Shown one piece after another: positions 28,405 through 42,929 of a stretch of DNA of 64,000 nucleotides. The stretch's first letter is position 1; each line of letters opens with the position of its first letter. The notes under the pieces are model-generated. The model was not told the origin of the DNA and ran no database searches. It worked only from the letters and a program-made list of their open reading frames with translations. Source of the DNA: Flavobacteriaceae bacterium PS02337 (GTDB lineage Bacteria; Bacteroidota; Bacteroidia; Flavobacteriales; Flavobacteriaceae); NCBI GenBank assembly GCA_029959285.1, contig JASCOE010000001.1:310001-374000 (forward strand). Reading direction: 5' to 3'. A program made the position numbers and the translations under genes.

Positions 28405-31400
28405 TTATAAATTAGAAAAAACAACTTTTTTAGTCAATGTATGTCCATTTTCTAAAGTTACTTTTACTAATAAAACCTGATCGCTAGAATTTAAATTAGA
28501 AATCTGCAAATCATTTGAATTGACTTTATTTTTATTGTAAAGTAATTGTGCACCAGCATTATAAATATTCACTTCTTTTAACGTTTCTTTTGATGAAGAG
28601 ATTTTTACCACTTTATTTTTCACTGAAACTAAAACGCTATTATCAAGATCTTCAAATTCTCCTGTTCCTAATGTTTTAGAAGTATAACGAAGATTGAAAC
28701 GATTTTCAAAAGTTCCAACTGCGGTAGTAAATTTATAGTTTCCATCACGAAGGTTTACTGTTTTACCTGCTAATAAATCTTCTAAATAAACTTCCTGAGT
28801 ATCAAAAAATCCATCCGCACGATCAATTGCAATTGTAAATTCTCCAGCAACTGTTGTGTTGTAACCTAAAGGAACAACATCTTTATTGTCAAAAGGAAGC
28901 GCACGACCTTGGATTGTTAATTTGTTAGCTTCGTTAACACTGTAAAAATCTACATAAGGATTAGCTTCTAACGAACCTGCATCATAATTAATATCCAAAC
29001 CATTAGTTGCTCCTTCTATATATCCAATTAAAGCCTGTTTGAAAGCGCCTTGATCATTAGATAAATTCAGCCAAACGCGATTTCTTTCAAAACCAACAGA
29101 TTCGGTAGTTTTATAGAACTGTTGATTGTTTCCATTTCGACGCATCGTGTTGTTGAAACTCATTGTTGCTGTTTTCGGCTGTGCCAAAAAGCCCTGACCC
29201 GCTGCAATATATTCTTGAAAAGGTTGCCCATTTAATAGTGCACCTTGAGCAGATCCTTGAGCAGATCCAGTTAAATTGAAAGCTGCGTAGTCATCACTAG
29301 TGTAAAAATATCTATGATCTCCCGGAACAGCCTGAGGTGGAGTATTGTGAGTCCAAAGGTAAATTGTTCCTAAGTTAGTGTTTCCGTTTATTAAAGCAAC
29401 CGCACTAATTGCAGATGGATATGGGTTACCTACTAAATTGTAAGTGCCTGAAACTACAGCTGGGTTTATGTCGCCATTATTTGGAATACCTGAAAATTTA
29501 CCTGTAAAAGTTGCAGCTATGCCAGTATCAAAAGGCTGTGGGGCTCTTACATTATAACCTTTTCCTGTTTCCATAACCTGTGTTCCATTGTAATTGATTA
29601 TCCATCCTGAATTAGGGTCATAAATGAAAAATTTATCACCTAAAGTGGCAGGAGAAAGATCATAAAGTTTAAAGCTTGGATTTGTAACAGGTGTTGACCA
29701 GTAAGTTAAGTCATAACGCCTTACATTAGTTTCTCTTTCGTAAGTAATACTGCCCGTGTTAGTTGCATTTGTTGTTTGCACTAAGCTAGAATTCGTTTTA
29801 AAAGTAAGCTGACCATTTGTTGTTACAGCATTAGTAATTACAAGTGTCACTCCGCTTTGAACTGTTACATTTATTGTTGGATTAATTGTTAATGAACAGC
29901 CATTTACAACTGGAGAACTCGACGGGAAAGGCGTACCAGAACTTGAAGCAATAACAATTCTTTTAGAACTAGTTGGTGCACCTCCCACCCAAGTTGTACC
30001 GTCCCACGTACTTGTTGAACTATCAGCTATTGATCGCGAAACTGAAGTTGAAGCACAAGTATTAGCCGTTTCAACTGTAAAAGTATAATTTCCAACCGCC
30101 AGACCAGTTATTTGGTAAGAAGTGCCTGAACCATTTATTGTTGCAGTCGCCTGCCCTGTTTGATTAATTTGCCAAGCTCCAGCGGGAAGATTTCCTAATG
30201 TGATAGTTCCTGCATTTGCGCAATCTATATCGGTATAGCTTGCAATTGTTGGAGTAGATTGTATCTGTTTTATAGTAATGACTGCGCTTCCCGTCATATC
30301 CGCCGCTACGGCAGTACAGTTAGCGTCACTTAAACCTGTAATAGCGTAAGTTGTTGTAGTATTTGGATTCACAGTAGCTGTATACGGATTTAAACTTGTT
30401 GAAAAAGTACCAGATATTGCTCCATATGTATAGGATATATTCCAAGGTGCAGTACCTGTAAATGAGACAGAAACTGTAGCATTTGCTCCATTACAGATGG
30501 TTGTAGAACCACTTACAACAGATGTTGGTCTAGGATTAACCGTTACCGTAATAGTAGTTCCAAAACTAGTACAACTTGCAGTACTTACCGTAAACGTTCC
30601 TGTATAGGTTCCTGCAGCTACATTTGCAGGTACATTTATGGCGTTTGAAATACTCCCTGCTCCGCCTGATGCAGTGAAACCTGGACTAGGAGCGACATTT
30701 GTTTTATTAGCAAATCCAGCCGTAATTGCTGCTGCATTCCATGTGATACTATAATTAATTGGTGTTCCTGTAGTAGCAGAATAACCAATTGGTAAATTTG
30801 CTACTGCAGTTGGTCGACAAGTTGTAGAATTAATTGTTGCAGGAGTAAGAGTGATTGATGTTGAATTAGTTACTGTAATTGGTGTACCGCATGCAGTTTC
30901 TCCACACGCATTTTTATACTTAACGTAATAAGTTGTATTTGCTGTAGGTGTTACAGTAATAGATCCATTTGAAAGTGTTGATCTTCCCACAAGAGTTCCA
31001 TTACAGCTTCCCGATGTCCATTCTGCATATCCTCCCGTGTTAGTTCCCATAGTACCTCCATTTACAGTTAAAGTTACCGTACCTCCCGCACAAACAGGAT
31101 TTGGACTAGCTGATGCCGATGTTGGAGCTCCTATTTCTGCTAAAGTATTTGTAACAACGATAACGATTGTTTCATCAGAATAAATCCCAGAAGTTACCGT
31201 TCTTCTATAATATGTTTTTTGACTAACATTACCCGTAATCGTATAATCTTTTCCTGTATTCACTCCTGGAGCAGCACTGTATCCAGAACTTGGATTCGTA
31301 GTACTTACTTCCCATAAATAAGAATAAGTTCCATTACCACCTGTAGGTGTCGATCCTGTTATAGTACCTGGATTTGTGCCTGCACAAATAGGAGTTGAAT

Positions 31401-32007
31401 AAGTTGCCACGACATAATATTTTTTTACAATTCCATAACAAGGATCTCCAAACGTATTATTATATGACCCAGAAGCAGGAATGGTTGCCGAAGTATTACC
31501 AAGTAAACCAGTAGTTACTGTATGACTGTTAAATGCATGACAAGAACCAATTGTGAAATTTGGAGCTGTTCCATTTGGTAGACCATAACTTGCAAACTTG
31601 ACGTTTATAAAAATACTACCGATTGGAGCCGATAAAGTTAAAGCCCCATCATTCTCACCTTTAATACCAGTAACTTCACCAGTTGTTCCATAGGATGCAA
31701 AATTATTATCAATTGCTGGATAAGGTGCTCCTGAAACTGAAATTCTTCCAGTATTTCCTCCACTATTTGAAAAAAAAGTGTCATTTGTATTTTGCGCTAC
31801 AGGATTAGAAATGGTAGCTCCCCACGTAGACAATAATGGACCAGCTCCACCCAATGTTAAAACCCCTGCCGAATGTTGAAAAGCTCCTAAAGCCACTTTA
31901 GATCCTGTTGCAAAAGACCAAAGATTAGTAACTGTTGTTGCTTTAGTCATAGTTACACCTGCAGCACTTGTATTTCTAATTGTTAGACTATTAACTGTAG
32001 CTGGCAT
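28405..32007 (-). pseudogene. C-terminal part of a T9SS type C protein split by an IS1595 element
   Basis: This is the 3' part of a gene whose 5' part lies at 36334-37701. The frame is open up to 32040 next to the insertion; the ATG at 32007 is merely internal, and no signal peptide is present. It encodes Ig-like/PKD-like repeats, then the shared module (from about 785; RRYDLTYWSTPVTNPSF) and the type C sorting domain (ENGHTLTKKVVF). Removing the element and one 8-bp duplication joins ...NYIF to NGSVAQVTSSG-MPATV and restores 1667 codons without a stop. As it stands this half lacks an export signal and probably a promoter, so it should be silent or cytosolic. Confidence 0.9.
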
Positions 32008-32040
32008 CCCAGAACTAGTAACTTGTGCAACTGAACCATT

Positions 32041-32048
32041 AAAAATAT
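32041..32048. repeat. Target-site duplication, left copy (AAAAATAT)
   Basis: Identical 8 bp flank both ends of the element (32041-32048 and 36334-36341). Eight bp is the usual duplication length for IS1595-family elements. Confidence 0.93.
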
Positions 32049-32071
32049 GGTAAGTATACCCATTTTACACC
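32049..32071. repeat. Left terminal inverted repeat of the IS1595-type element
   Basis: These 23 bp, beginning GGTAAGTATACCCATTTT, are the perfect reverse complement of 36311-36333. Confidence 0.95.
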
Positions 32072-32109
32072 AGAGTTTATTTGTTTCTATTTTTTTGCGG
32101 GCGTGTGGA

Positions 32110-32481
32110 TTATTTATTTTTAGGGGTTTCAAAAGGCAATGAAATGTCTATCTGAAATTTAATTCTTGATGTTGTTTGATTAGTTATATTTGTTTCGGTA
32201 GATGCATTAGCATTAAAGATTTGTATTTTTAAACCACCTCCTATTTTATTAGCATCTTCTTCTGAAACAGTTACAGCAACATCGAAATCTATTTGTGTTA
32301 TTGTTCTTTTAGAAATGACTCCTGTTGATGATTGTTCGTATATAGAGTTTAAAACATTTCTATCATCTAATCTTCTTAGAGGATTAACTAAGACATTTTT
32401 TTCTTGCCCAAAAGTTTGAGCATTAATAACACCATTACTGATTGATTTAATTGTTTCAGTAATAAATACATCTAATTCCAT
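32110..32481 (-). CDS. Cargo protein: conserved hypothetical, trypsin-co-occurring-like
   Basis: A 123-aa protein beginning MELDVFITETIKSISNGV and ending with SRIKFQIDISLPFE. The order of an N-terminal amphipathic helix, an FDVAVTV strand, a Gly-rich GGGLKIQIF turn and a C-terminal SRIKF strand recalls small proteins of the trypsin-co-occurring (Trypco2-like) group found in bacterial conflict islands. I am unsure of that link. There is no signal peptide, so it is cytosolic. It is the last gene before the left end of the element and reads outward toward the disrupted gene. Confidence 0.55.
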   Translation of the reverse strand: MELDVFITETIKSISNGVINAQTFGQEKNVLVNPLRRLDDRNVLNSIYEQSSTGVISKRTITQIDFDVAVTVSEEDANKIGGGLKIQIFNANASTETNITNQTTSRIKFQIDISLPFETPKNK

Positions 32482-32520
32482 TGATTACTTTTTAAGTTTC
32501 TCAAATATACAGAAATAATT

Positions 32521-32548
32521 AAGCCTCTAAATTATTAGAGGCTTTTTT
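32521..32548 (+). terminator. Terminator inside the IS1595 element
   Basis: A 9-bp stem (32521-32529 with 32536-32544) is followed by T6. No plus-strand gene lies between it and the left end, so it may block transcription entering from outside. Confidence 0.7.
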
Positions 32549-32646
32549 GTATGAATTATTTTGCTATTTTTATAGAATCATTCCTGCGTACCGCTGTTGA
32601 ATTTTGGTTAGGCTTTAGCTAATGAAGAGGGCTTTTGCCAACCGAT

Positions 32647-32808
32647 ATGAATCACTTTTACAACCTGTTTGATGGCGTTTGTTACAAGTGGATTTTTCGT
32701 CAGTCACGTCTAAGAAACGGTAGAAAAGAGATTGCTCCGCAAGGACATCCCTTTACTATACCTGTCGAAGAAGTAGAATGCCATCACTGTAACTCTTGTG
32801 AACAATAG
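32647..32808 (+). CDS. Possible 53-aa Cys-rich micro-protein
   Basis: The ATG at 32647 opens a 53-codon frame ending in TAG at 32806. The peptide (MNHFYNLFDGVCYKWIFRQ at the start) is rich in Arg and aromatic residues and ends ECHHCNSCEQ, a Cys/His cluster that could bind metal. Its composition looks coding-like, but no promoter box is evident. It could equally be a chance frame. Confidence 0.3.
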   Translation: MNHFYNLFDGVCYKWIFRQSRLRNGRKEIAPQGHPFTIPVEEVECHHCNSCEQ

Positions 32809-32852
32809 TAGCAAGAATGATACTTAGAGCGATGTTCCACCATTGCTCTATT

Positions 32853-33146
32853 TTATTTCTTAAAATGTCTTGCTTTTAAAAGTGCTTTATTAAAGTCTGA
32901 CAGTTCTTCTTTTTTACGCCCTTTTTCAATATCTTCAAAAATAGCTGTTTTAACTGTCTTTCTTTTACCGTCAATTAATAACGGAAGTTCTAAATACTCA
33001 ACCTCTGATAAATCTTCTTGTAAATACTCTGCCATATCTTCAAGACTAAAATACCATTGTTGTTCAAATTCTGTCTTGTGTACGCTTTTATCTTGTAAAA
33101 GCTTTTCTTTTTCTAGTATTTTCAAATCATTGTGTTTAAAGTTCAA
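32853..33146 (-). CDS. Cargo protein with BRO-N/DinD-like N-terminus
   Basis: A 97-aa protein. The start (FKHNDLKILEKEKLLQDK, then EQQWYFSLEDMAEYL) resembles the opening of BRO-N/DinD-like proteins (KHNDIKI... EWYFSVVDVI). The usual following ST-rich segment is missing and the protein ends in a basic KARHFKK tail. It may be a shortened antirepressor-type DNA-binding domain (inference). It faces away from the small plus-strand gene at 33188 across a short divergent promoter region. Confidence 0.5.
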   Translation of the reverse strand: MNFKHNDLKILEKEKLLQDKSVHKTEFEQQWYFSLEDMAEYLQEDLSEVEYLELPLLIDGKRKTVKTAIFEDIEKGRKKEELSDFNKALLKARHFKK

Positions 33147-33163
33147 AATTAGTGAATAAATTT

Positions 33164-33171
33164 TATCTTTG
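33164..33171 (+). promoter_or_regulatory. -7 box (TATCTTTG) of the 33188 cargo gene
   Basis: A perfect TAnnTTTG match lies 16 nt upstream of the ATG at 33188. It falls inside the longer open frame that begins at 33152, so the later ATG is the better start. Confidence 0.5.
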
Positions 33172-33187
33172 GAAAAAACTCTTATTT

Positions 33188-33343
33188 ATGGAAGATAAAC
33201 TAATTGAAATTATTACTGTACAATCAGAAATTATTGAAATTTTATCTCGAGAATACATCGATACCCAACGAAGCCCTTATGAAAAGCAAGAAATGAGGGA
33301 TCTGGTAAGACTATTAAAAGACTTGCAGAAAGACCTTATATAA
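33188..33343 (+). CDS. Small cargo protein, 51 aa, helical
   Basis: A 51-aa mainly helical charged protein (MEDKLIEIITVQSEIIEILS, then a YEKQEMRDLVRLLKDLQKDL end). There is no signal peptide or motif that I recognise. I use the ATG at 33188 because a promoter box lies between it and the upstream in-frame ATG (33152). Its 3' end overlaps the convergent gene at 33314 by 30 bp. Confidence 0.45.
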   Translation: MEDKLIEIITVQSEIIEILSREYIDTQRSPYEKQEMRDLVRLLKDLQKDLI

Positions 33344-33502
33344 TAATTCTCCTTTGAATATATTGTATGCACAAGTAGGATGCTCCTCATTATTAAAAGA
33401 TTCTAATTTTTGCATAAGCTGTTTTGCTTTTTCGCTGTTATCTTCTTTTAAAAAGTTATAGAAGTCATTGTAATCTCGATGCTGTTTCAGTTCTTCTACC
33501 AT
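33314..33502 (-). CDS. Small cargo protein translated right after the transposase
   Basis: A 62-aa charged, helical protein (MVEELKQHRDYNDFYNFLKE at the start). Its ATG lies 2 nt after the transposase stop codon, which suggests translational coupling and a shared transcript. I do not recognise the family. A role as transposition accessory or regulator is possible but unsupported beyond position. Confidence 0.45.
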   Translation of the reverse strand: MVEELKQHRDYNDFYNFLKEDNSEKAKQLMQKLESFNNEEHPTCAYNIFKGELLYKVFLQVF

Positions 33503-33504
33503 AA

Positions 33505-34476
33505 TTAAGCAGTTAGTTGTTTGTATTTTGTTCTTATCTGAGAGTTAGCAATAATGTAATTGAATCTTTCTGAATTGCTCTGCTCTCTTAGATTGAATCT
33601 GTATACATGTTCATTAACATAGTTTTGGATGTGTTTTCTTGACCACCAGTTATAAATACCGTTGTAACTTCTTTTCATTATCCCCCAAAATCCCTCAATT
33701 GAGTTGCTGTGTATTTCTGGGTTATCGAAATCTACATACTGTTTCTTTGCGTGGTCTACAATATGATGATCGTAATGATTTTCTAGTCCTTTGTATCCGT
33801 GCCATTCATCTGAGATTAAAACGCTGTCTTTTTCTACAAATGATTTTATAAACGACTGTATTGATTCTCTTTTTGTGTTTGGCGCAACAATGCATTTTAC
33901 CTTACTTGGAGAAATCATAATCTTTTTACCGTCTATTATTTCAGATTCCCCTCTCTGCAATACTCCAATTACAGGCGTTTTGTCTTTAAAGCTTCTTCCT
34001 TGTGACTGTTCGACCTTTTTATCTTTATGTCGGTTTTTATTTTTCCCGCCAAAAAATGATTCATCAGCTTCACATATTCCGTCAAATTTATCGTCAATGT
34101 CGTTTTCAATTCCAAAACATTTTCGGATTCTCATAAGCATAAACCACGCTGATTTTTGGCTAATCTGTAAATCTTTTCCAAGCTGTACAGAACTGATTCC
34201 TTTTTTATGGTTTGTAACTAAATAAATAGCCATAAACCATTTTGGAAGTTCAATTTTAGTATTGTCAAACATAGAGCCTGTTTTAACTGTAAAGTATTTA
34301 CCGCTTGTTTTGCATTTGTACTTACCGCCTTTACATTTATACACTATACTGTCTTCGTGAAAAGGGCTTACAGGCTTATTATTCCAATAAAGCGCTTCTA
34401 AGTGTTCTATGCACTTTTCTTCGCTAGCAAATTCTCTTGCTACTTCAAGTATTGAATTGAAATCCTTATTAAACAT
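33505..34476 (-). CDS. IS1595-family (ISXO2-like) transposase
   Basis: A 323-aa transposase that cuts the inverted repeats and inserts the element, leaving 8-bp duplications. The N-terminal part has a degenerate zinc-ribbon (YKCKGGKYKCKTSGKYFTVK), then the family stretch WFMAIYLVTNHKKGIS and an HTH (SAWFMLMRIRK). The DDE/N core is seen as EADESFFGG, ISDEWHGY and HSNSIEGFWGIMKR. I chose the ATG at 34476, not 34512, because a full promoter (TTG-N20-TAAATTTG, 34528-34498) sits between them and family members begin MFNKDF. No frameshift or stop is present, so it looks functional. Confidence 0.92.
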   Translation of the reverse strand: MFNKDFNSILEVAREFASEEKCIEHLEALYWNNKPVSPFHEDSIVYKCKGGKYKCKTSGKYFTVKTGSMFDNTKIELPKWFMAIYLVTNHKKGISSVQLGKDLQISQKSAWFMLMRIRKCFGIENDIDDKFDGICEADESFFGGKNKNRHKDKKVEQSQGRSFKDKTPVIGVLQRGESEIIDGKKIMISPSKVKCIVAPNTKRESIQSFIKSFVEKDSVLISDEWHGYKGLENHYDHHIVDHAKKQYVDFDNPEIHSNSIEGFWGIMKRSYNGIYNWWSRKHIQNYVNEHVYRFNLREQSNSERFNYIIANSQIRTKYKQLTA

Positions 34477-34497
34477 GACTTTTAGTTTTTCTTTACC

Positions 34498-34544
34498 CAA
34501 ATTTACGAACATTTTTACACTTAAACAATAAATTAGTGTAAAAA
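34498..34544 (-). promoter_or_regulatory. Transposase promoter overlapped by an inverted repeat
   Basis: TTG (34528-34526), 20 nt and TAAATTTG (34505-34498) form a good Bacteroidota promoter. A 9-bp inverted repeat, TTTTTACAC (34512-34520) with GTGTAAAAA (34536-34544), flanks the -33 element. Its half-sites resemble the inner end of the element's terminal repeats (GGTGTAAAAT), so the transposase may bind its own promoter (inference). Confidence 0.55.
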
Positions 34545-34871
34545 AGTGCTAATTTTTATTAGTCAGGTATTATTTAAAGCCGTGAATACAAAAGTAATTG
34601 AGATATTTTTGTACTCCAATTCTTTGAAATCTACTGTAATTTGCTACTTTTACAGGATTGAAAATATAAGCGTTAGCTGTTATCATGGTATCGAAATCTG
34701 GACAATTTCAAAAGCACCACAGGATAATAAGACTATGCTCATGCTTTGGCGTGGGCGTAACTTATCTTGGTGCAAGGTTTGTCCAGAACCCCGATTCAGG
34801 TATTGGTTACAAACCCACGCTTTTTTATAAAGCAACTTCACTTCGGGTTTGGGTGGACTAAATCAAACCTT
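34545..34871. other. Long leader region of the plus-strand cargo operon
   Basis: A promoter-like TTTG-N18-TACTTTTA (34623-34652) is followed by about 215 nt with no convincing gene and then the ATG at 34872. Within it GCGTGGG (34749-34755) pairs with CCCACGC (34814-34820), and GTAAC with GTTAC just inside, directly before T6. It may be a structured leader or attenuator. Confidence 0.45.
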
Positions 34872-35378
34872 ATGAAAAAACTTTTACTTGTTTTATGCGT
34901 TTTGGCTTTCCTAAGCTGTTCTTCCGACGAATCCAAAACTGATTCAAATAGTTCTAACTCTAACTACATAGAGTATAACGGTGAAAAATTCTACTTTACC
35001 GAAGCAACAATCAAGCGACAATATGAAAATGATTCCAACTCTACTTCATTTGTAATATCTTTCAGTAACAACTCTATGACTTCTTACTTTCAACTAGAAC
35101 TAAGTACAAGTTGCAATAAATGCCCTGTTGACAATTTAATTGGTGCTACCTATACGCTAAGTTCAAATGCTTATATAAGAGTAATGGGACTAGGTAAATT
35201 CAAAAATGAATCATACATGAATGTTCTTTCAAAAGAAAGTCTTATTACAACAGTAATTAACAGCGTTATTGTCACTAAGAGTTCAGATACTAAATATGGA
35301 TTTAAATTCAGTTTTGTTACTCCAGCAGGAAAAGCAACAGGCGAATATTTAGGAGAATTAAAGAAACTTAACTATTAA
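34872..35378 (+). CDS. Cargo lipoprotein, function unknown
   Basis: A 168-aa predicted lipoprotein: signal MKKLLLVLCVLAFLSC with lipobox Cys16, a Ser/Asn-rich linker (about 17-32), then a beta-rich domain with a CNKC pair (about residues 82-85) and a C-terminal GEYLGELKKLNY. I do not recognise the family. The ATG at 34872 is preferred to the upstream in-frame ATG (34767) because it starts the signal peptide. The next gene begins 4 nt after the stop, so the two are coupled. Confidence 0.65.
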   Translation: MKKLLLVLCVLAFLSCSSDESKTDSNSSNSNYIEYNGEKFYFTEATIKRQYENDSNSTSFVISFSNNSMTSYFQLELSTSCNKCPVDNLIGATYTLSSNAYIRVMGLGKFKNESYMNVLSKESLITTVINSVIVTKSSDTKYGFKFSFVTPAGKATGEYLGELKKLNY

Positions 35379-35382
35379 AGAC

Positions 35383-35751
35383 ATGCTCGCATTTATATTC
35401 ATTGCTTTCGCAGTTTTCGTACTGTATAGCCATTTTTCAAAACCTGATGGAAATAATTCATCAATATCAAGACCACAGTTACACGCTGAAATGAGGAATA
35501 GACTGAAAAAATCTTTCATTGACGAAATAAAAACAAATCAGAGCATTAAAGAATTCAGAAATACCGAAGTAGAAACCATGCTGATACTTAATTTAATTTC
35601 TAATTTTTATCAAGCCAGTTTAAGGAACTTTGTTGAGCACAGGTTATCTATGGGACTTACAGAGCAAGAAGCTATCACTATGGTTAAAACCGTAACTAAT
35701 GAAGTTATGGATATTTATATCCAAGATGCAAAACAATTTTATATAAAGTAA
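35383..35751 (+). CDS. Cargo protein with one N-terminal membrane helix
   Basis: A 122-aa protein with an N-terminal transmembrane helix (2-17) followed by a helical charged domain. No known motif is seen. It begins 4 nt after the lipoprotein stop codon, indicating one operon; the pair may form an envelope complex (inference). Confidence 0.55.
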   Translation: MLAFIFIAFAVFVLYSHFSKPDGNNSSISRPQLHAEMRNRLKKSFIDEIKTNQSIKEFRNTEVETMLILNLISNFYQASLRNFVEHRLSMGLTEQEAITMVKTVTNEVMDIYIQDAKQFYIK

Positions 35752-35791
35752 ATCGGGTGTTTGTACTTAGAATTCCTTTATGTGTATTCTA

Positions 35792-35799
35792 TATATTTG
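35792..35799 (+). promoter_or_regulatory. -7 box (TATATTTG) before the 35819 cargo gene
   Basis: A perfect TAnnTTTG box lies 19 nt before the ATG at 35819, inside the longer in-frame extension that begins at 35780. It supports the later start. Confidence 0.45.
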
Positions 35800-35818
35800 T
35801 ATTGCTAAAACTTTAAAT

Positions 35819-36166
35819 ATGAGTAAAATATCACAACAAGATTTAGAAAGTTTGAAATCTTTAGCTGAAAATGCACAACAGGATTGGGAGTATACTAATG
35901 TAAATGCCCGTTCTTCCGCTTACATGAGCATTGAAACTATTCGACAGCTTAAAACTGCTACAAAAAACAACATAATGTTTACTATATTAGGAGCTGTTTT
36001 AGGTTTCATCTCATCAATATCTGTAGCAATATATACCAAATCGGACATAGACAAAGATTTACAAGAACTGCATACACAAATGCGCGAATTAAAAGTGCAA
36101 GTTGCACATTTTCATACGTATCAGTCCAAAAAAGATTCCTTAAAAACCTCTTCCAAAAAGAATTAG
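35819..36166 (+). CDS. Cargo membrane protein with coiled coil
   Basis: A 115-aa protein. The N-terminal helical part (MSKISQQDLESLKSLAENAQ) precedes a single transmembrane helix (about 52-70, FTILGAVLGFISSISVAIY) and a C-terminal coiled coil ending in a Lys/Ser-rich tail. There is no family that I recognise. A promoter box and a downstream terminator (36246-36281) frame it as its own transcript, the last gene before the right end of the element. Confidence 0.6.
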   Translation: MSKISQQDLESLKSLAENAQQDWEYTNVNARSSAYMSIETIRQLKTATKNNIMFTILGAVLGFISSISVAIYTKSDIDKDLQELHTQMRELKVQVAHFHTYQSKKDSLKTSSKKN

Positions 36167-36245
36167 AAAACTTCCAAGGCGCTGTTAAAATTATCATGTA
36201 TTCTATAGGGTCTTCGATAAATTTTTTCATAGTAGTATAAATTAT

Positions 36246-36281
36246 AAAACCCTCTTGGAAAAATAATCTGAGAGGGTTTTT
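36246..36281 (+). terminator. Terminator at the right end of the element
   Basis: A 10-bp perfect stem (36246-36255 with 36271-36280), 15-nt loop, and T5. It also has A-rich sequence on the other side, so it may act in both directions and stop transcription from the split gene. Confidence 0.82.
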
Positions 36282-36310
36282 GTTATTAAATTTGTTTTTA
36301 TTACTCGTTT

Positions 36311-36333
36311 GGTGTAAAATGGGTATACTTACC
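36311..36333. repeat. Right terminal inverted repeat of the IS1595-type element
   Basis: Perfect reverse complement of 32049-32071 (23 bp, ends in ...ATACTTACC). Confidence 0.95.
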
Positions 36334-36341
36334 AAAAATAT
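36334..36341. repeat. Target-site duplication, right copy (AAAAATAT)
   Basis: Identical to 32041-32048. Confidence 0.93.
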
Positions 36342-37917
36342 AATTTGCACCAGAATTATAAGTAGTCAACATTGTAGCTGCAACAGGTATCGATCCATCT
36401 ATCCCAGCTGCATTTGCAGTTATTAAAGTTCCTCCCGAATTTAAAATAAATTTTGCAGTTCCCGATGTTCCTCTTCCTCCCGAAATAGAAACATTATATG
36501 TCCCAAAATCAATTGTTCCGGTTACATTTAGTTCACCCATCCATGGATCAGTATCGCTTGTATTAGCAGTACTTAGTGTAAAGTTTGACGCTAACTTTAA
36601 AGTACTAGTCGCATTTACATAATATTTTACCCAAGCTCCAGCCCCCGCTGTTGGCATAGTTAACGTCTGAATACCAGTGCCATTAAAATTTAAAATTCCG
36701 TTTTGAACTACTCCAATTGTTGTTATTGAACCTGCCCCGGCACTATTTGTAAAATTTCCACCCAAATTGACAGTGCTTACACCTGAATTACCTCCATTGA
36801 AGTCGAAAACTCCACCAGTTTGATTATAATTCCCAACTATTGAGTGTGTAAAACTTGTAGCATTATTAGCTACAAAAGTACCACCCGACAAAGTAAAATC
36901 TCCATTAACAGTCAGATTTCCTGCGGCTGTTTTATTTGAACTTCCAGAAATTATTAAATTGCTATATGTAGTAGACTTTACAGTTTGATTACTTGTTCCG
37001 TTATAATTTATGGTATTCCCTGGTGAAGTCGCATCAAGCGTTGGTACAATAGTTGAACCTCCAAAATTTAAAGTTCCTGTATTAGTTATTGTGCTCGTAC
37101 CTGCTAATGCTGTGGAAACAGTAAGTGTCCCTATGTTAGAAGTAGTTCCCGATATTGTCAAGTTTGGAATTGCAATAGTATTGTTCCCTCCAATGGTTTT
37201 ACCTGTTCCCAAAAACGTATGAATGCCATTATTAGCTGTAAATGTTCCATCATTAGTTAAATTACCACCAAAATTAATTACAGAATTAGCCGTTTCATTC
37301 CAGACACCTCCTGTGTTAATTGCTACATCACCATTAAATATTTTTGTACTTGTATTTGCTAAGTTTAACGTTCCTCCATTTGCAATTTGCAAACTAGCGC
37401 CTATAGTCCATCCCAAGTTTGTTGTCACAAGCGTGCTACCATTTCTCACAATAAAGATATCTCCAGAGTTCGCAAAAGTAGTAGGGGCAGTCCCTCCTCC
37501 ATTTGTGTTAATACCCCAATTAGACAGAACACTTGGATCACCAGTAGCTTTTGAATAATAGGTTATCGCATTAGCATAAGAATAAGCAAAAAACATCGCT
37601 AAAGTAAGAAAACCCAAACTTGGATTGAAAATCTTTTTTGAAGTATGATTAAGAATTTTTGAAAATAAAAAGCGAACAAACAAAAGTAGTTTTCGTTTCA
37701 TATCAATGTGGTATTTATTTTAAATTTGTTTTTGGTTGCTAAAAGCAAAAAGGGCAATTGTCTTTAGTTTTTTCAATCAAAATTTAAAAGTTAAAATCTT
37801 GTTTTTCAACGCGATTAGACAACTGTTAAATTACCTTACAAAAATATGTAAATTCGGCACATACACAACATTTTACAGTCTTTCTTTTCCACAAATGTTA
37901 ACATTTTTTAGAAGATT

Positions 37918-37947
37918 TTTGTAAGTATTTGACGGATTTTACTTTTA
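37918..37947 (+). promoter_or_regulatory. recX promoter
   Basis: TTTG (37918-37921), 18 nt, then TACTTTTA (37940-37947), one base from the TAnnTTTG consensus, 25 nt before the recX ATG. The same arrangement, N18 with TACTTTTA, occurs at 34623-34652. Confidence 0.45.
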
Positions 37948-37972
37948 ATCGTTAAAATGCAAGAAAAAACCG

Positions 37973-38443
37973 ATGAAGGACACTTTTACACTCAAAGAAG
38001 CTTTACAAAAATTAGAACACTTTTGCGCCTATCAAGAGCGCTGCCACGAAGAAGTTGTTTCTAAATTATACAGTCTAAAAATGACTTCTGATGAAATTGA
38101 TACCATCATTGTAAAACTTATTGAAGACAACTTTCTAAACGAAACTAGGTTTGCTTGCAGTTTTGCTCGCGGTAAGCATCGCATTAAACATTGGGGAAAA
38201 ATTAGGATTACAAATGAACTCAAAGCAAGACAAATTTCTTCGACCAATATCAATTTGGCTTTAAAAGAAATTTCTCCAGAAGAATATTTTGAAACTTTTG
38301 AAAATCTGGCAGAAAGATGCTGGAATAATTCAACAGAAAGCAACACATTAAAAAAACGTAAGAAATTTTGCGATTATATGCTTCGAAGAGGTTATGAAAG
38401 CAATTTAGTTTATGAAAAAGTAAAAGAATTGGAAGGGAACTAA
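37973..38443 (+). CDS. recX: RecX family regulator of RecA
   Basis: A 156-aa cytosolic protein of three-helix RecX repeats: ALQKLEHFCAYQERCHEEV, then IVKLIEDNFLNETRFACSFA and RGKHRIKHWGKIRITNELK, with a final MLRRGYESNLVYEKVKEL. RecX binds RecA filaments and limits recombination and SOS. recA is not in this window. It stands alone between two divergent T9SS type C genes, one of them the gene split by the IS element. Confidence 0.9.
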   Translation: MKDTFTLKEALQKLEHFCAYQERCHEEVVSKLYSLKMTSDEIDTIIVKLIEDNFLNETRFACSFARGKHRIKHWGKIRITNELKARQISSTNINLALKEISPEEYFETFENLAERCWNNSTESNTLKKRKKFCDYMLRRGYESNLVYEKVKELEGN

Positions 38444-38849: not shown

Positions 38850-41800
38850 ATGAAAAAAACTTTACTTTTATTTTTATTGTTGCCTTTTTTAGGATTTGCT
38901 CAAATTCCTACTGGAACTTATGTAATTAGCACGGCAAATACTGACCCTAATTTAAAAACACTTGCACTTGCAGTCGCTAGAGTAAATGCAGTTGGAATTA
39001 CAGGAGGACCGGTAACATTTTTAATAGATGAAGATCAAACAATAACTTCACAACTTAGAATTGATGCTATAACTAACTCTAGTGCAGTAAATACATTAAC
39101 GATTAAAACAAATACCGGAAGAGCTAATATCAACATTACTGCTAATATGCCAAATTCTTCAACTGGTATACCGGCAATCTTTATGTTCAATGGTACATCA
39201 AATGTAATTATTGATGGAAGCAATGCTACTGGAACGAGAAATTTAACTTTAATAAACAATGATAATATTAATAATGCTCAACGTTCTATCATTTGGGTTG
39301 CGAGTAACGGATCTGTAGGATCATCAAACATTACTGTTCAAAATTGCATTTTAAGGTTTAATTCAAGAAATGACCAATTAAGACTTTTAACAGGGGTTTA
39401 TTCTGGCAATAATAAGCTCAACACGGGCAACAACACAATAACTGAAGAGGTAAATACTGCGGCTAACTCTAATATAAAAATTATTAACAATGAAATGTTG
39501 AACGTAAAAGACGGAATCAACATTAATGGAAATTCTACTGCTTCATTATCACCAACCGGCTGGAAAATTCAGGGAAACAAAATTGGAACTACAACAGTTG
39601 CAGAGAAACCTGTAAGAGGAATGTACATTAACAACTTCTTAAATTACGAAATTTCGGGAAATACTATATCTGGAGTTAGAAACACTTTAAATCTAAGTAA
39701 TGATGCCGCTGCTATTATTTTGGAAGGCACGAGTAACGGTACAGTTTCCGGAAACACAATTAACGATATCGTTAATGCGGTATACAACAATAGTTATTTG
39801 ACTGCAGGAATAATAGTCAATTCATTGGGAGTTACAAACATCAATAATAATATCATCAATAATATTTACAATACCACAATTGACAACAATCCATATAATT
39901 ACCACAATAAAGGACAAGGTATCTATATCAAAAACGGATCAGCAATTAATTTGTATTACAATACGATTGTAATGGATTATGCTAGTGGAAGTGCATATTC
40001 TGCCTGCTTGTATACCACAGGAGGATCTAATATTAATGTTAGAAATAATATTTTTGTCAATTCACAACCAAACTCGCAATATGCAGTATTCAAAAATGGA
40101 GGAACATTTGGAACTGTAAGTAACAATGACTATTACGTTACCAATGTAACAAATCGATTTTTAAATAAAATTGATGGTAACGATTACCCTGGTACCGCAG
40201 CAGGAACTGTCCCAACGTCATGGAATACTGCCGCAGGAGATTCAGCTTCTCAAAGTTTCCTTCCAACATTTGTTACGCCTGGATCCAATTATCACATTCA
40301 AGACGTTACAGCAAATAACAATCTAAGCGCAGTAGCAATTTCAGGAATTACAACAGATATTGATGGAGATACAAGAGTAAAACCATACATGGGAGCTGAT
40401 GAGATTTACAAATGTGTACCAACTGGCGATCAAACCTCTTCTGCATCAGAATCATGGATAGGATACGTATATAGTTTTACAGGGAATACTGCGCCAAATC
40501 CAGCATATAATGCTATACCATCAGGAACTACTTATTTAGGAACTGTTACAGAACCGAAAAACTTTGATAGAGATGTTGCTGCGGGAGCTGTTAATGGGGT
40601 TACTAGAAATTTTTGTGATCCAGCACCAACTGACAAATTCTTTGTTCGATACAAAATGACTACTACTCTTACCGAAGCCGGAAGTTATAATTTTACAGTA
40701 GGTAGTGATGACGGAATCAGACTTTATGTTGACGGAAACCTTACTCCTCTTATAACACGTTGGAATCAACACAGTTATATTGTAGACTCCGCGCTACTTA
40801 ACCTAACTGCTGGTGTACACAATTTTGTTCTAGAATATTATGAATTTGATGGTTCCTCTAGAGTTGCATTTTCTTTTGGTTTAACAAAAGGAAATCAAGC
40901 TTTACCATACGGAATTAACGAATGGAATGTATATGGTTTAAACAAAAATGACTTAAACCTAAATAACACTGTATATGCTGGATACTATGTTGACTCAAAC
41001 GTCAACGTTGATTCGAAAAATTATTGGCCGGTTGATAAATCACCAGCAGCTGCTACAAATTGGCAAGGTGCTCCAATGCCAAATGATAATTTTACAGTAT
41101 CTTACAGACGTCAAGGTTTTCCTTGCGGAACATATAGAATAGAACTTGCAAATTCTGATGACGCAACGCAAATTTATTTAAACGACAATTTAATATTTAC
41201 TCAAGCTGGATATACAAATACTCCTGCCTATATTAACGGTACTACAACATATGTTCTAAACAGTTCTTCTAAAATCGAGGTTCGTTTGAGAGAAGATGGA
41301 GGAAATGCTAACGTAGGCGTAAATCTTGTGCGAGTATTAACAACTTACACTGGATCTGAAACAGTTAATTCAAATACATCAATTGTAATCAGCTCACCAA
41401 CAGTTACATTGGGATCAGATATACAGGTTTGTTCTTGCACAGTTAATGCAGGATCTACATTTAATATTCCTGTTGATAGAACTTTAACAGTTGATGAAGA
41501 CATAAATGTAATTGGAACAGGAAAACTAGTATTACAAAATGGAGGATCGCTTCTTCAAACTTCAACTAGTAAAACCATGTTTACTGGAAATATTGCAACT
41601 GCATTTGAAGTTCAAAGAACAACAAACGTAAGACGTTACGATTTAACTTACTGGTCAACGCCTGTTACAAATCCAAGTTTTAAACTTTATGATCTTTCTC
41701 CTGCTACTTTAGGTGATAAATTTTTCATTTATGACCCTAATTCAGGATGGATAATCAATTACAATGGAACACAGGTTATGGAAGCAGGAAAAGGGTACAG

Positions 41801-42929
41801 CGTGAGAGCTCCACAGCCTTATGATACTGGAGCAGCCGCAAGTTTTACAGGTGTATTTAAAGGTACTCCAAATAATGGCGACATAAATCCAGCAGTAGTT
41901 TCAGGTACTTACAATTTAGTTGGTAACCCATACCCTTCTGCAATTAGTGCTGTTGCTTTAATAAACGGAAACACTAACTTAGGAACAATTTACCTTTGGA
42001 CTCACAATACGCCACCGCAGGCAGTTGCTGGAGATCATAGATATTTTTACACTAGCGATGACTATACAGCTTTCAACTTAACTGGATCTACTCAAGGGGC
42101 ACTATTAAATGGAGAAACCTTTAAAGAATACATAGCTGCAGGTCAAGGATTTTTAGCACAGCCAAAAACTGCAACAATGAATTTCAACAACACAATGCGT
42201 CGTAGTGCTAACAACAAACAATTCTATAAAACTACGGAATCTATTGGCTTTGAAAGAAATCGTGTGTGGCTGAATTTATCTAATGATCAAGGTGCTTTCA
42301 AACAGGCTTTGATTGGATATATTGAAGGAGCAACGAATGATTTGGATATTAATTATGATGCAGGTTCGTTAGAAGCTAATCCGTATATAGATTTTTATAG
42401 TGTTAACGAAGCTAACAAATTAACGATTCAAGGTCGCGCGCTTCCTTTTGATAATAAAGATGTAGTGCCTTTGGGTTATAATACAACAGTTGCAGGAGAA
42501 TTTACAATTTCAATTGATCGTGCTGATGGATTCTTCGATACTCAAGACGTTTATTTAGAAGATTTGACAGCAGGTAAAACTGTAAACCTGCGTGATGGAA
42601 ATTATAAATTTACTACCGCAGTTGGAACTTTTGAAAATCGTTTCAATCTTCGTTATACTTCTAAAACATTAGGAACAGGAGAATTTGAAGATCTTGACAA
42701 TAGTGTTTTAGTTTCAGTAAAATCTAAAGTAGTAAAAGTTAGCGCTTCTAAAGAAAACATAAAAGAAGTTCAGATTTATAATATCGGCGGCCAATCGGTT
42801 TACAATAAAACTAAAGTTGGCACTAATGAATTACAGATTTCAAATTTACCTTCAGGAAATCAGGTTTTATTAGTAAAAGTTATTTTAGAAAATGGCTCTC
42901 AAGTAACCAAAAAGGTTATTTTCAACTAA
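38850..42929 (+). CDS. Beta-helix / PA14-containing surface protein, T9SS type C signal
   Basis: A 1359-aa secreted protein. The signal peptide (1-17, LLPFLGFAQ) is followed by a right-handed parallel beta-helix (about 50-480; many NN-I and SGNTI-type turns), a GADE end, and a PA14-like lectin domain (about 525-690, FFVRYKMTTTLTEAGSYNF and GSDDGIRLYVDG). A second similar beta domain follows, then the shared module from about 925 and the type C sorting domain (NGSQVTKKVIFN). The likely role is carbohydrate binding or adhesion. The last about 440 residues are nearly identical to those of the split gene at 28405. Confidence 0.87.
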   Translation: MKKTLLLFLLLPFLGFAQIPTGTYVISTANTDPNLKTLALAVARVNAVGITGGPVTFLIDEDQTITSQLRIDAITNSSAVNTLTIKTNTGRANINITANMPNSSTGIPAIFMFNGTSNVIIDGSNATGTRNLTLINNDNINNAQRSIIWVASNGSVGSSNITVQNCILRFNSRNDQLRLLTGVYSGNNKLNTGNNTITEEVNTAANSNIKIINNEMLNVKDGININGNSTASLSPTGWKIQGNKIGTTTVAEKPVRGMYINNFLNYEISGNTISGVRNTLNLSNDAAAIILEGTSNGTVSGNTINDIVNAVYNNSYLTAGIIVNSLGVTNINNNIINNIYNTTIDNNPYNYHNKGQGIYIKNGSAINLYYNTIVMDYASGSAYSACLYTTGGSNINVRNNIFVNSQPNSQYAVFKNGGTFGTVSNNDYYVTNVTNRFLNKIDGNDYPGTAAGTVPTSWNTAAGDSASQSFLPTFVTPGSNYHIQDVTANNNLSAVAISGITTDIDGDTRVKPYMGADEIYKCVPTGDQTSSASESWIGYVYSFTGNTAPNPAYNAIPSGTTYLGTVTEPKNFDRDVAAGAVNGVTRNFCDPAPTDKFFVRYKMTTTLTEAGSYNFTVGSDDGIRLYVDGNLTPLITRWNQHSYIVDSALLNLTAGVHNFVLEYYEFDGSSRVAFSFGLTKGNQALPYGINEWNVYGLNKNDLNLNNTVYAGYYVDSNVNVDSKNYWPVDKSPAAATNWQGAPMPNDNFTVSYRRQGFPCGTYRIELANSDDATQIYLNDNLIFTQAGYTNTPAYINGTTTYVLNSSSKIEVRLREDGGNANVGVNLVRVLTTYTGSETVNSNTSIVISSPTVTLGSDIQVCSCTVNAGSTFNIPVDRTLTVDEDINVIGTGKLVLQNGGSLLQTSTSKTMFTGNIATAFEVQRTTNVRRYDLTYWSTPVTNPSFKLYDLSPATLGDKFFIYDPNSGWIINYNGTQVMEAGKGYSVRAPQPYDTGAAASFTGVFKGTPNNGDINPAVVSGTYNLVGNPYPSAISAVALINGNTNLGTIYLWTHNTPPQAVAGDHRYFYTSDDYTAFNLTGSTQGALLNGETFKEYIAAGQGFLAQPKTATMNFNNTMRRSANNKQFYKTTESIGFERNRVWLNLSNDQGAFKQALIGYIEGATNDLDINYDAGSLEANPYIDFYSVNEANKLTIQGRALPFDNKDVVPLGYNTTVAGEFTISIDRADGFFDTQDVYLEDLTAGKTVNLRDGNYKFTTAVGTFENRFNLRYTSKTLGTGEFEDLDNSVLVSVKSKVVKVSASKENIKEVQIYNIGGQSVYNKTKVGTNELQISNLPSGNQVLLVKVILENGSQVTKKVIFN

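What the first reader, a model, noticed from the sequence alone, without database searches (positions are those of the whole stretch)
32041..36341. Recent IS1595-type insertion of 4.3 kb with cargo splits a T9SS type C gene
Perfect 23-bp terminal repeats, an 8-bp duplication (AAAAATAT) and an intact ISXO2-like transposase define the element exactly (32049-36333). Removing it with one duplication joins codon 456 of the 5' part to the 3' part in frame, giving 1667 codons without a stop. Most IS1595 elements are about 1 kb; this one carries seven or eight other genes. The duplication length and transposase type follow known IS1595 biology; mobility today is an inference.
Basis: partly seen in the sequence, partly recalled or inferred. 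Interest (0 to 1): 0.78.

Follow-up and report, generated by a model that had tools for sequence, protein, structure and literature searches.

The report
Transposon carrying an unlisted RNA leader
A jumping gene that recently split a secreted-protein gene in a Flavobacterium carries, among small cargo genes, a folded RNA of about 160 letters that recurs across the Bacteroidota, is missing from the RNA family library, and probably works as a portable on/off leader for the gene behind it.

Summary
The insertion is real. Window 32049-36333 is a 4,285-bp IS1595-family element with 24-bp perfect ends, an 8-bp target duplication and an intact transposase. It splits a T9SS type C gene; frame arithmetic gives 1,667 codons without a stop at the seam. 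The same genome holds a second insertion (seen only as two contig ends, duplication AAAAATTA) and a 1,015-bp cargo-only derivative. Large size is normal in this lineage: 24 elements, this one included, span 2.1-10.9 kb. Some carry phage-defence-like genes, and one complete relative sits on a viral contig.

Window 34669-34828 encodes a structured RNA just upstream of a cargo lipoprotein gene. It shows strong covariation, occurs in 208 of 399 sampled genomes of the genus and across Bacteroidota, and matches no Rfam family in the loci tested. It ends in a T-run. Its apical strand can pair with itself or with the strand before the T-run, and in a subset a downstream hairpin loop covaries with a bulge. 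The likeliest role is a portable cis-acting attenuator leader; that function is inferred, not shown.

The parts
32041..32048 (.). left copy of the 8-bp target duplication AAAAATAT
36334..36341 (.). right copy of the 8-bp target duplication
32049..32072 (+). left terminal inverted repeat, 24 bp, perfect
36310..36333 (-). right terminal inverted repeat, 24 bp, perfect
33505..34512 (-). IS1595-family (ISXO2-like) transposase, 335 aa, intact
   Evidence: PF12762 1.1e-38; NF033547 189 bits, cut-off 75
32853..33146 (-). 97-aa ORF near the transposase; homologues lie beside the transposase in three other elements (L042, L049, L050)
32110..32481 (-). 123-aa cargo ORF of unknown function; 77% identical to its homologue in the closest relative's element (L042)
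33152..33343 (+). 63-aa ORF, no family above cut-off
33314..33502 (-). 62-aa ORF, no family above cut-off
32647..32808 (+). short ORF (53 aa from the inner ATG), uncertain; lies in a stretch 83% conserved at DNA level with L042
34669..34820 (+). structured RNA: one long imperfect hairpin with conserved core; member of an RNA family found across Bacteroidota (model match 34669-34828)
   Evidence: model R2 152.5 bits, E=1e-27; covariation of the family; fold z-score -4.39 on + strand, -2.15 on - strand for 34649-34873
34821..34826 (+). T-run directly after the RNA hairpin (terminator-like)
   Evidence: run of at least four T in 135 of 144 family members
34811..34816 (+). bulge AAACCC in the RNA's 3' strand
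34837..34857 (+). small 3' hairpin whose loop CGGGTTT is complementary to the bulge AAACCC
34872..35378 (+). 168-aa cargo lipoprotein-like ORF (by its N-terminal sequence) starting 43 nt after the RNA match
   Evidence: homologue in L042
35383..35751 (+). 122-aa cargo ORF, no family above cut-off
35780..36166 (+). 128-aa cargo ORF, no family above cut-off
36342..37701 (-). 5' part of the split outer gene (with one duplication 456 codons)
   Evidence: homologues lie in open frames of 1,879-4,056 aa
28405..32040 (-). 3' part of the split outer gene, ending in a T9SS type C sorting domain
   Evidence: NF033708 49.6 bits, cut-off 40; frame

Best explanation
Window 32049-36333 is a mobile IS1595-family transposon of a Flavobacterium lineage that habitually carries cargo. 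It moved recently into a T9SS-secreted protein gene, duplicating 8 bp, and presumably inactivated it. Shown: ends, duplication, transposase family, split frame, further insertions in the genome. Its cargo contains a self-contained module: a structured RNA followed by a lipoprotein-like gene. The RNA belongs to a Bacteroidota-wide family that sits at the 5' side of very diverse genes (exported proteins, SusC, restriction-modification methylases, response regulators). Shown: structure by covariation, position, distribution. The best-supported mechanism is transcription attenuation in cis. The 3' strand of the apical hairpin (GCGTGGG) can pair with its 5' partner (read-through fold) or with the CCCACGC just before the T-run (terminator fold), so an unknown signal would decide whether the downstream gene is transcribed. 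In read-through transcripts of the subclass to which the window belongs, a hairpin close to the start codon would kiss the bulge left free in the read-through fold. The switching, the signal and the effect on the gene are inferred.
For: Insertion. Lineage: 24 elements of 2,129-10,927 bp, the window's included (control). RNA: on 70 aligned members 88.5% of pair cells are standard pairs (shuffled 70.2%), 608 cells have both sides changed (shuffled 184), covariation is 0.496 (shuffled 0.177; slid partners at most 0.094). G-U pairs outnumber A-C mismatches 452 to 93 and 502 to 108, pointing to the modelled strand as the RNA. A model built from members in public genome records (R2) finds the window RNA at E=1e-27 and hits 10 of the 24 elements at E<0.001. 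120 of 137 members have a same-strand ORF starting within 400 nt (random points 741 of 2,250), with a peak at 20-60 nt; TAnnTTTG starts at -45..-10 in 67 of 143 (background 92 of 2,860); T-run in 135 of 144. In 121 of 122 scorable members (of 144) the three bases before the terminal ACGC-like core pair with the apical strand, against 14.4% expected with random bases of the same RNA. Bulge and 3' loop pair over at least 5 bp in 34 of 71 (shuffled spacers 7%) and over 6 bp in 28 of 71 (0.8%), with compensated variants.
Against: No transcript, termination or regulation was measured. I saw no exact TAnnTTTG box at the expected place of the window copy. 17 of the 137 scored members have no same-strand ORF within 400 nt, and the SusC-linked members lie about 200-400 nt away, which would also fit a free sRNA. 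The apical strand hardly varies, so the alternative pairing cannot be tested by covariation on both sides; the first four pairs were built into the search expression, so only three positions are informative. 37 of the 71 close-ORF members show no 5-bp kissing, and the shuffles do not allow for relatedness. The covariance-model alignments lean towards their structure. 14 of the 24 elements have no R2 match at E<0.001.
Confidence: 0.72

Rival explanations
1. The RNA is a free small RNA with its own promoter and terminator that acts in trans on other mRNAs; its place before genes reflects shared promoters or co-transfer, not cis control.
For: TAnnTTTG box upstream in 67 of 143 and a T-run in 135 of 144 are also the marks of a stand-alone sRNA; some genomes hold several copies; SusC-linked copies lie about 200-400 nt from the ORF. 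The published sRNA Rfp18 of Flavobacterium psychrophilum affects protease mRNAs (PMC9723704, passages read).
Against: The peak of ORF starts 20-60 nt after the RNA leaves little room for a separate promoter; the 3' hairpin between T-run and ATG covaries with the RNA's bulge in about half of the close-ORF members, so there RNA and mRNA 5' end evolve as one unit.
Confidence: 0.3
2. The cargo, RNA included, is host DNA picked up by chance by an IS1595 element; the RNA has no special link with the transposon.
For: The RNA is widespread outside such elements: of the 60 RNA-selected loci only 2 (L104, L107) showed a relative of this transposase within 5 kb, and the position of the RNA relative to the transposase varies.
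Against: 10 RNAs at E<0.001 in 126 kb of 23 non-nested elements (about 79 per Mb) against 4 in the 5.7-Mb own genome (0.7 per Mb); both transposase-bearing viral contigs found also carry it. The comparison is crude because the elements come from many genomes.
Confidence: 0.3
3. The hairpin is a folded single-strand DNA site (attC-like or a transposition site), not an RNA.
For: Long imperfect hairpin with conserved ends and association with mobile DNA.
Against: Strong excess of G-U over A-C, upstream promoter box and downstream T-run; 14 of 24 elements lack an R2 match. No search for integrases or attC sites was made.
Confidence: 0.05
4. There was no insertion: two neighbouring genes happen to be separated by this DNA.
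For: The 5' and 3' parts each form an ORF.
Against: Perfect 24-bp ends, exact 8-bp duplication, in-frame continuity over 1,667 codons, and the four homologues of the 5' part lie in open frames of 1,879-4,056 aa.
Confidence: 0.01

Closest known systems
IS1595 family (ISXO2-like transposases; NCBIfam NF033547, Pfam PF12762)
   Same: Transposase family, inverted terminal repeats, 8-bp target duplication.
   Different: 2.1-10.9 kb with varied cargo instead of the roughly 1 kb usual for the family (usual size recalled, not looked up).
Insertion sequences with passenger genes (transporter IS) and mobile insertion cassettes without transposase
   Same: Passenger genes between IS ends; the genome also holds a 1,015-bp cargo-only unit with related ends and its own 8-bp duplication.
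   Different: Here 24 elements of one transposase lineage are of this kind, and several carry a structured RNA module. The category names are recalled.
Tn7-like transposons with defence cargo (PMC8649781, title and start of abstract seen in the listing)
   Same: Transposon cargo that includes phage-defence-like genes.
   Different: IS1595 elements have a single transposase; Tn7's larger machinery is recalled.
Flavo-1 RNA (RF01705) and 6S-Flavo (RF01685)
   Same: Structured RNA motifs of Bacteroidetes (PMC2864571, passages read; Flavo-1 also in PMC9723704, passages read).
   Different: No Rfam match to either over the RNA in the window or in the loci tested.
Rfp18 sRNA of Flavobacterium psychrophilum (PMC9723704, passages read)
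   Same: Structured sRNA conserved in the genus.
   Different: Described as pairing with protease mRNAs through a third stem-loop; the present RNA is one long hairpin. Sequences were not compared.
DonS family of antisense RNAs at susC genes of Bacteroides (PMC7366714, passages read)
   Same: RNA next to susC genes.
   Different: DonS RNAs are 78-128 nt and divergently encoded, antisense; the present RNA lies upstream on the same strand.

Membership tests
IS1595 family insertion sequence | ISXO2-like transposase above curated cut-off | tested here: met
   NF033547 189.1 bits, cut-off 75; PF12762 133 bits, cut-off 27
IS1595 family insertion sequence | Zinc-ribbon domain in the N-terminal part | tested here: inconclusive
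   PF12760 18.4 bits, below its cut-off of 25.4
IS1595 family insertion sequence | 8-bp target duplication and terminal inverted repeats | tested here: met
IS1595 family insertion sequence | Assignment to a named ISfinder subgroup | not testable with these tools
   ISfinder is not available here
T9SS type C substrate (outer gene) | C-terminal type C sorting domain | tested here: met
   NF033708 49.6 bits, cut-off 40
Any Rfam 15 RNA family, Flavo-1 and 6S-Flavo included | Covariance-model match over the RNA | tested here: not met
   window 31000-38000 none at E up to 1; window 34640-34880 at E up to 10 only a snoRNA hit of 12.6 bits on the other strand; no match over the RNA in 16 loci at E up to 1 and 18 loci at gathering scores
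Structured RNA | Compensatory changes beyond shuffled and slid controls | tested here: met
   70 sequences
Cis-acting attenuator leader | Same-strand gene directly downstream | tested here: met
   120 of 137 against 741 of 2,250 random points
Cis-acting attenuator leader | Mutually exclusive terminator and anti-terminator pairings | tested here: inconclusive
   121 of 122 keep the alternative pairing at the three informative positions, 14.4% expected, but the apical strand is nearly invariant
Cis-acting attenuator leader | Regulated termination or read-through | not testable with these tools
   needs transcription data
Integron attC site | Integrase partner and attC box layout | not tested
   no attC or integrase search was run; G-U excess, promoter box and T-run argue for RNA

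The most novel reading that the evidence does not exclude
Bacteroidota possess a widespread, uncatalogued class of roughly 160-190-nt RNA that serves as a portable expression switch for horizontally moving and surface-exposed gene functions. It combines a bistable attenuator with, in a subclass, a kissing hairpin next to the start codon, and it is spread as cargo by IS1595-family transposons, some of them on phages.
Probability: 0.5. Interest if true: 0.87.

Novelty: new variant of a known kind. Interest (0 to 1): 0.74.

Why it matters
A structured RNA found in about half of the sampled genomes of the genus and in many other Bacteroidota, yet without an Rfam match, would add a regulatory layer to a phylum in which RNA control is little understood. 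Because it precedes SusC genes, restriction-modification methylases, response regulators and transposon cargo, it may explain how newly acquired genes are kept quiet or switched on. The transposon lineage also gives a defined, single-transposase vehicle for accessory and defence-like genes in Flavobacterium, and a copy on a viral contig suggests how it may travel.

Tried and rejected
Rejected as main reading: an attC-like DNA site (G-U excess, promoter box, T-run). Rejected: the RNA as a required part of transposition, because 14 of 24 elements lack an R2 match at E<0.001 and its position varies. Rejected: identity with Flavo-1 or 6S-Flavo. A weak NCBIfam match of the cargo lipoprotein to a Shiga toxin B model (19.7 bits against a cut-off of 199.5, residues 1-71 with the signal peptide) was judged chance and not followed. 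A second group of elements (L060, L061, L062, L064, L066) has a conserved leader-like stretch; with filters off, on 701 bases of L064 chosen for it, R2 scores it 25.7 bits (E 8.6e-5), so kinship is likely but not secure. Blastn of the RNA against plasmids gave nothing. The paper searches listed nothing that I recognised as this RNA or this element lineage; the library lacks most subscription papers and I read only listings and passages.

Limits: R2 was built from sequences that R1 found, so the two models share the starting structure; I did not check whether any A6 member lies in an IS1595 element. Of the 81 records searched, 78 have an R1 hit over the pattern match, L166 and L168 have none, and the Fibrobacter record L210 has its hit elsewhere. 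Cargo scans: 91 of the 155 non-transposase ORFs went into A5 (those of at least 110 aa plus one of 97 aa, one duplicate left out), and 20 of these were scanned singly. Of the 130 downstream ORFs, 87 went into A7; those over about 900 aa (mostly SusC-like) and some cut, repeated or doubtful ones were left out, though one of 917 aa was kept. 22 of 144 members could not be scored in the apical/terminal test.
Full report
THE OBSERVATION. The left end begins at 32049 and the right end finishes at 36333; the inverted repeats are perfect over 24 bp and are flanked by AAAAATAT on both sides. The transposase (335 aa, minus strand) passes the curated IS1595 model by a wide margin (189 bits, cut-off 75) and Pfam's ISXO2-like domain. 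The outer gene reads in frame across the site: 1,360 nt of the 5' part plus one 8-nt duplication are 456 codons, a 33-nt bridge holds 11 codons without a stop, and the 3' ORF has 1,200 codons, together 1,667. The 3' part ends in a T9SS type C sorting domain (49.6 bits, cut-off 40). In 149 other genomes of the genus, 4 hold homologues of the 5' part at E<1e-20, all within open frames of 1,879-4,056 aa, so a natural end near codon 466 is unlikely; their matches cover residues 25-281 of 453, so none reaches the insertion point and none is an empty site.

MOBILITY IN THE SAME GENOME. The whole element occurs once in full. Contig C3 ends with its first 127 bp and contig C10 ends with its last 108 bp, both 100% identical; the flank before one and after the other is AAAAATTA, so these are the two sides of a second insertion with its own duplication, the interior being unassembled. 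Contig C44 holds a third unit (L041:9537-10551, 1,015 bp) with related ends (21 and 18 of 23 bases), TTAAGATA on both sides, two small ORFs and no transposase: a cargo-only derivative that the same transposase could move (movement in trans is inference).

THE LINEAGE. A search of 300 genomes of the genus gave 33 transposase matches in 25 genomes at E<1e-40, the window's included. I fetched the surroundings of the other 32 (31 loci, plus one locus of a distant IS1595 of the own genome). Looking for ends plus an exact 8-bp duplication gave, with the window, 24 elements that I accept, 2,129 to 10,927 bp long, median 4,735 among the 23 non-nested. Nine matches gave no convincing pair (L045, L048, L054, L058, L059, L063, L070, L071, L072). 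Chimeric flanks reached at least 18 of 24 end bases in 8 of 400 trials, so the weakest accepted pair (18 of 24, L046) rests also on its GGTAA ends. One element is nested in another (L055). Among 91 cargo proteins scanned together, 60 PADLOC families matched at E<=0.001, 25 of them shown. In single scans of 20 of them, 8 matched at E<1e-5: L049 holds an adjacent IetA/IetS pair, L061 a Shedu-like SduA beside an RmrA/PD-Lambda-2-like protein, L065 an RmrA, L066 a PDC-M68B, L067 a PD-Lambda-2-like and L068 a PDC-S13 relative; 12 of the 20 had none. Single components are not proof of working systems. For the window's own cargo only the first protein was shown singly, without a match.

THE RNA INSIDE. 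Comparing elements by DNA, a non-coding stretch stood out: window 34643-34886, about 71-88% identical among seven elements whose neighbouring cargo differs. All seven copies fold into one long imperfect hairpin; 9 of 50 consensus pairs have changes on both sides. The plus strand of 34649-34873 folds better than shuffles (z -4.39), the minus strand less so (z -2.15). Rfam has no match.

A FAMILY, NOT A CURIOSITY. A covariance model from the seven copies (R1) matched 208 of 399 genomes of the genus at E<=0.001. On 70 aligned members, 88.5% of pair cells are standard pairs against 70.2% after shuffling, 608 cells have both sides changed against 184, and the covariation score is 0.496 against 0.177 shuffled and at most 0.094 slid. 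One viral contig matched. R1 hits lie over the pattern match in 78 of these 81 records. A second model built from these hits (R2) found the window RNA at 152.5 bits, matched 10 of the 24 elements at E<0.001, and 43 of 296 genomes (26 of 139 genera) across the phylum at E<=1e-4. Thirty-four further loci run against Rfam gave no match over the RNA (16 at E up to 1; 18 at gathering scores).

ANATOMY AND POSITION. Among 144 distinct members, 137 could be scored for neighbours: 120 have a same-strand ORF within 400 nt, against 741 of 2,250 random points; 69 of the starts lie between 20 and 80 nt, 60 of them between 20 and 60. The box TAnnTTTG (named for Flavobacterium in PMC9723704, passages read) starts 45 to 10 nt before the RNA in 67 of 143, against 92 of 2,860 windows; a run of at least four T closes 135 of 144. 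I saw no exact box at that place in the window copy. Downstream genes are diverse. Of the 70 members in A4, 23 have a protein of one SusC-like cluster within 5 kb and 17 have a downstream ORF of that size class within 400 nt; the family was confirmed on one of them (L150). Among 87 other downstream proteins, Pfam counts 11 response regulators, 3 members each for several DNA methylase families and 3 redoxins. Exported or membrane N-termini are enriched by a simple hydropathy rule: 47 of 73 close and 35 of 51 farther ORFs, against 310 of 987 other ORFs.

HOW IT PROBABLY WORKS. Two sequence features suggest switching. First, the 3' strand of the apical hairpin, GCGTGGG, is complementary to the strand right before the T-run, which exists in 22 versions. 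Three of these bases are unpaired in the hairpin fold; they all pair with the apical strand in 121 of 122 scorable members, against 14.4% expected with random bases of the same RNA. Pairing there would make a classical terminator; pairing within the apical hairpin would not. Second, when an ORF starts within 61 nt, a small hairpin between T-run and start codon often exposes a loop complementary to the bulge: at least 5 pairs in 34 of 71 against 7% with shuffled spacers, 6 pairs in 28 of 71 against 0.8%, with matched variants such as AAACCC:GGGTTT, AGTCCC:GGGACT, TGTCCC:GGGACA and ATTCCC:GGGAAT; 37 of 71 do not show it. The simplest reading is an attenuator leader whose read-through form is, in a subclass, capped by a kissing contact near the start codon. 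The signal is unknown; termination and control were not measured.

TRANSPOSON AND RNA TOGETHER. Inside the elements RNA hits are about 79 per Mb (10 in 126 kb) against 0.7 per Mb in the own genome (4 in 5.7 Mb); this is crude but large. Two RNA-selected loci also lie in complete elements (L104, 7,366 bp; L107, 5,427 bp). A 144-kb IMG/VR contig (L290; its viral status is the collection's) carries a complete 5,024-bp element with 24 of 24 end bases, duplication TTAATCTT, a 79% identical transposase and the RNA 48 nt before an ORF that looks like a membrane protein; a second transposase-bearing viral contig (L291) also carries the RNA, though no convincing ends were found there.

NOVELTY. The IS1595 assignment is ordinary, and IS elements with passenger genes are a known kind (recalled). 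The cargo-bearing lineage and the RNA family were not recognised in the listings of the literature searches made; PMC9723704, PMC6414381, PMC2864571 and PMC7366714 were seen as passages only. I rate the whole as a new variant of a known kind, with the RNA as the part that deserves follow-up.

Noticed in passing
L041:9537-10551 (own genome, contig C44): A 1,015-bp unit with related ends and its own 8-bp duplication TTAAGATA carries two small ORFs and no transposase: a cargo-only derivative.
   Followed up: partly
L290:2952-7975 (viral contig): A complete 5,024-bp relative of the element, RNA included, sits on a 144-kb IMG/VR contig, suggesting transfer by phage.
   Followed up: partly
L055:8974-15804: One cargo-bearing IS1595 element (3,002 bp) is nested inside another; the relative L056 (3,708 bp, 97% identical at its ends) lacks the inner one.
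   Followed up: no
window about 28650 and 42690: The 3' part of the split gene and the neighbouring gene 38850-42929 have very similar C-terminal regions in inverted orientation (seen), a possible substrate for inversion.
   Followed up: no
L073:8924-9891 and 10401-10564 (own genome, contig C55): A second, distant IS1595 of about 1 kb lies next to another copy of the RNA and its downstream gene.
   Followed up: no
L129, L136, L142, L150, L158, L162 and others: Many RNA copies of the genus stand before SusC-like genes followed by a SusD-like gene; some have a small HTH-like regulator gene (by my reading, not scanned) divergent upstream.
   Followed up: partly
alignment A5 (element cargo): Single cargo proteins match an amino acid:DNA transferase, an aGPT-type pyrophosphorylase and a thymidylate synthase, families linked to phage DNA hypermodification (link recalled).
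   Followed up: no
L060, L061, L062, L064, L066: A second conserved leader-like stretch precedes ORFs; by eye in the alignment, the sequence just before the start codon repeats part of the leader's 5' strand.
   Followed up: partly
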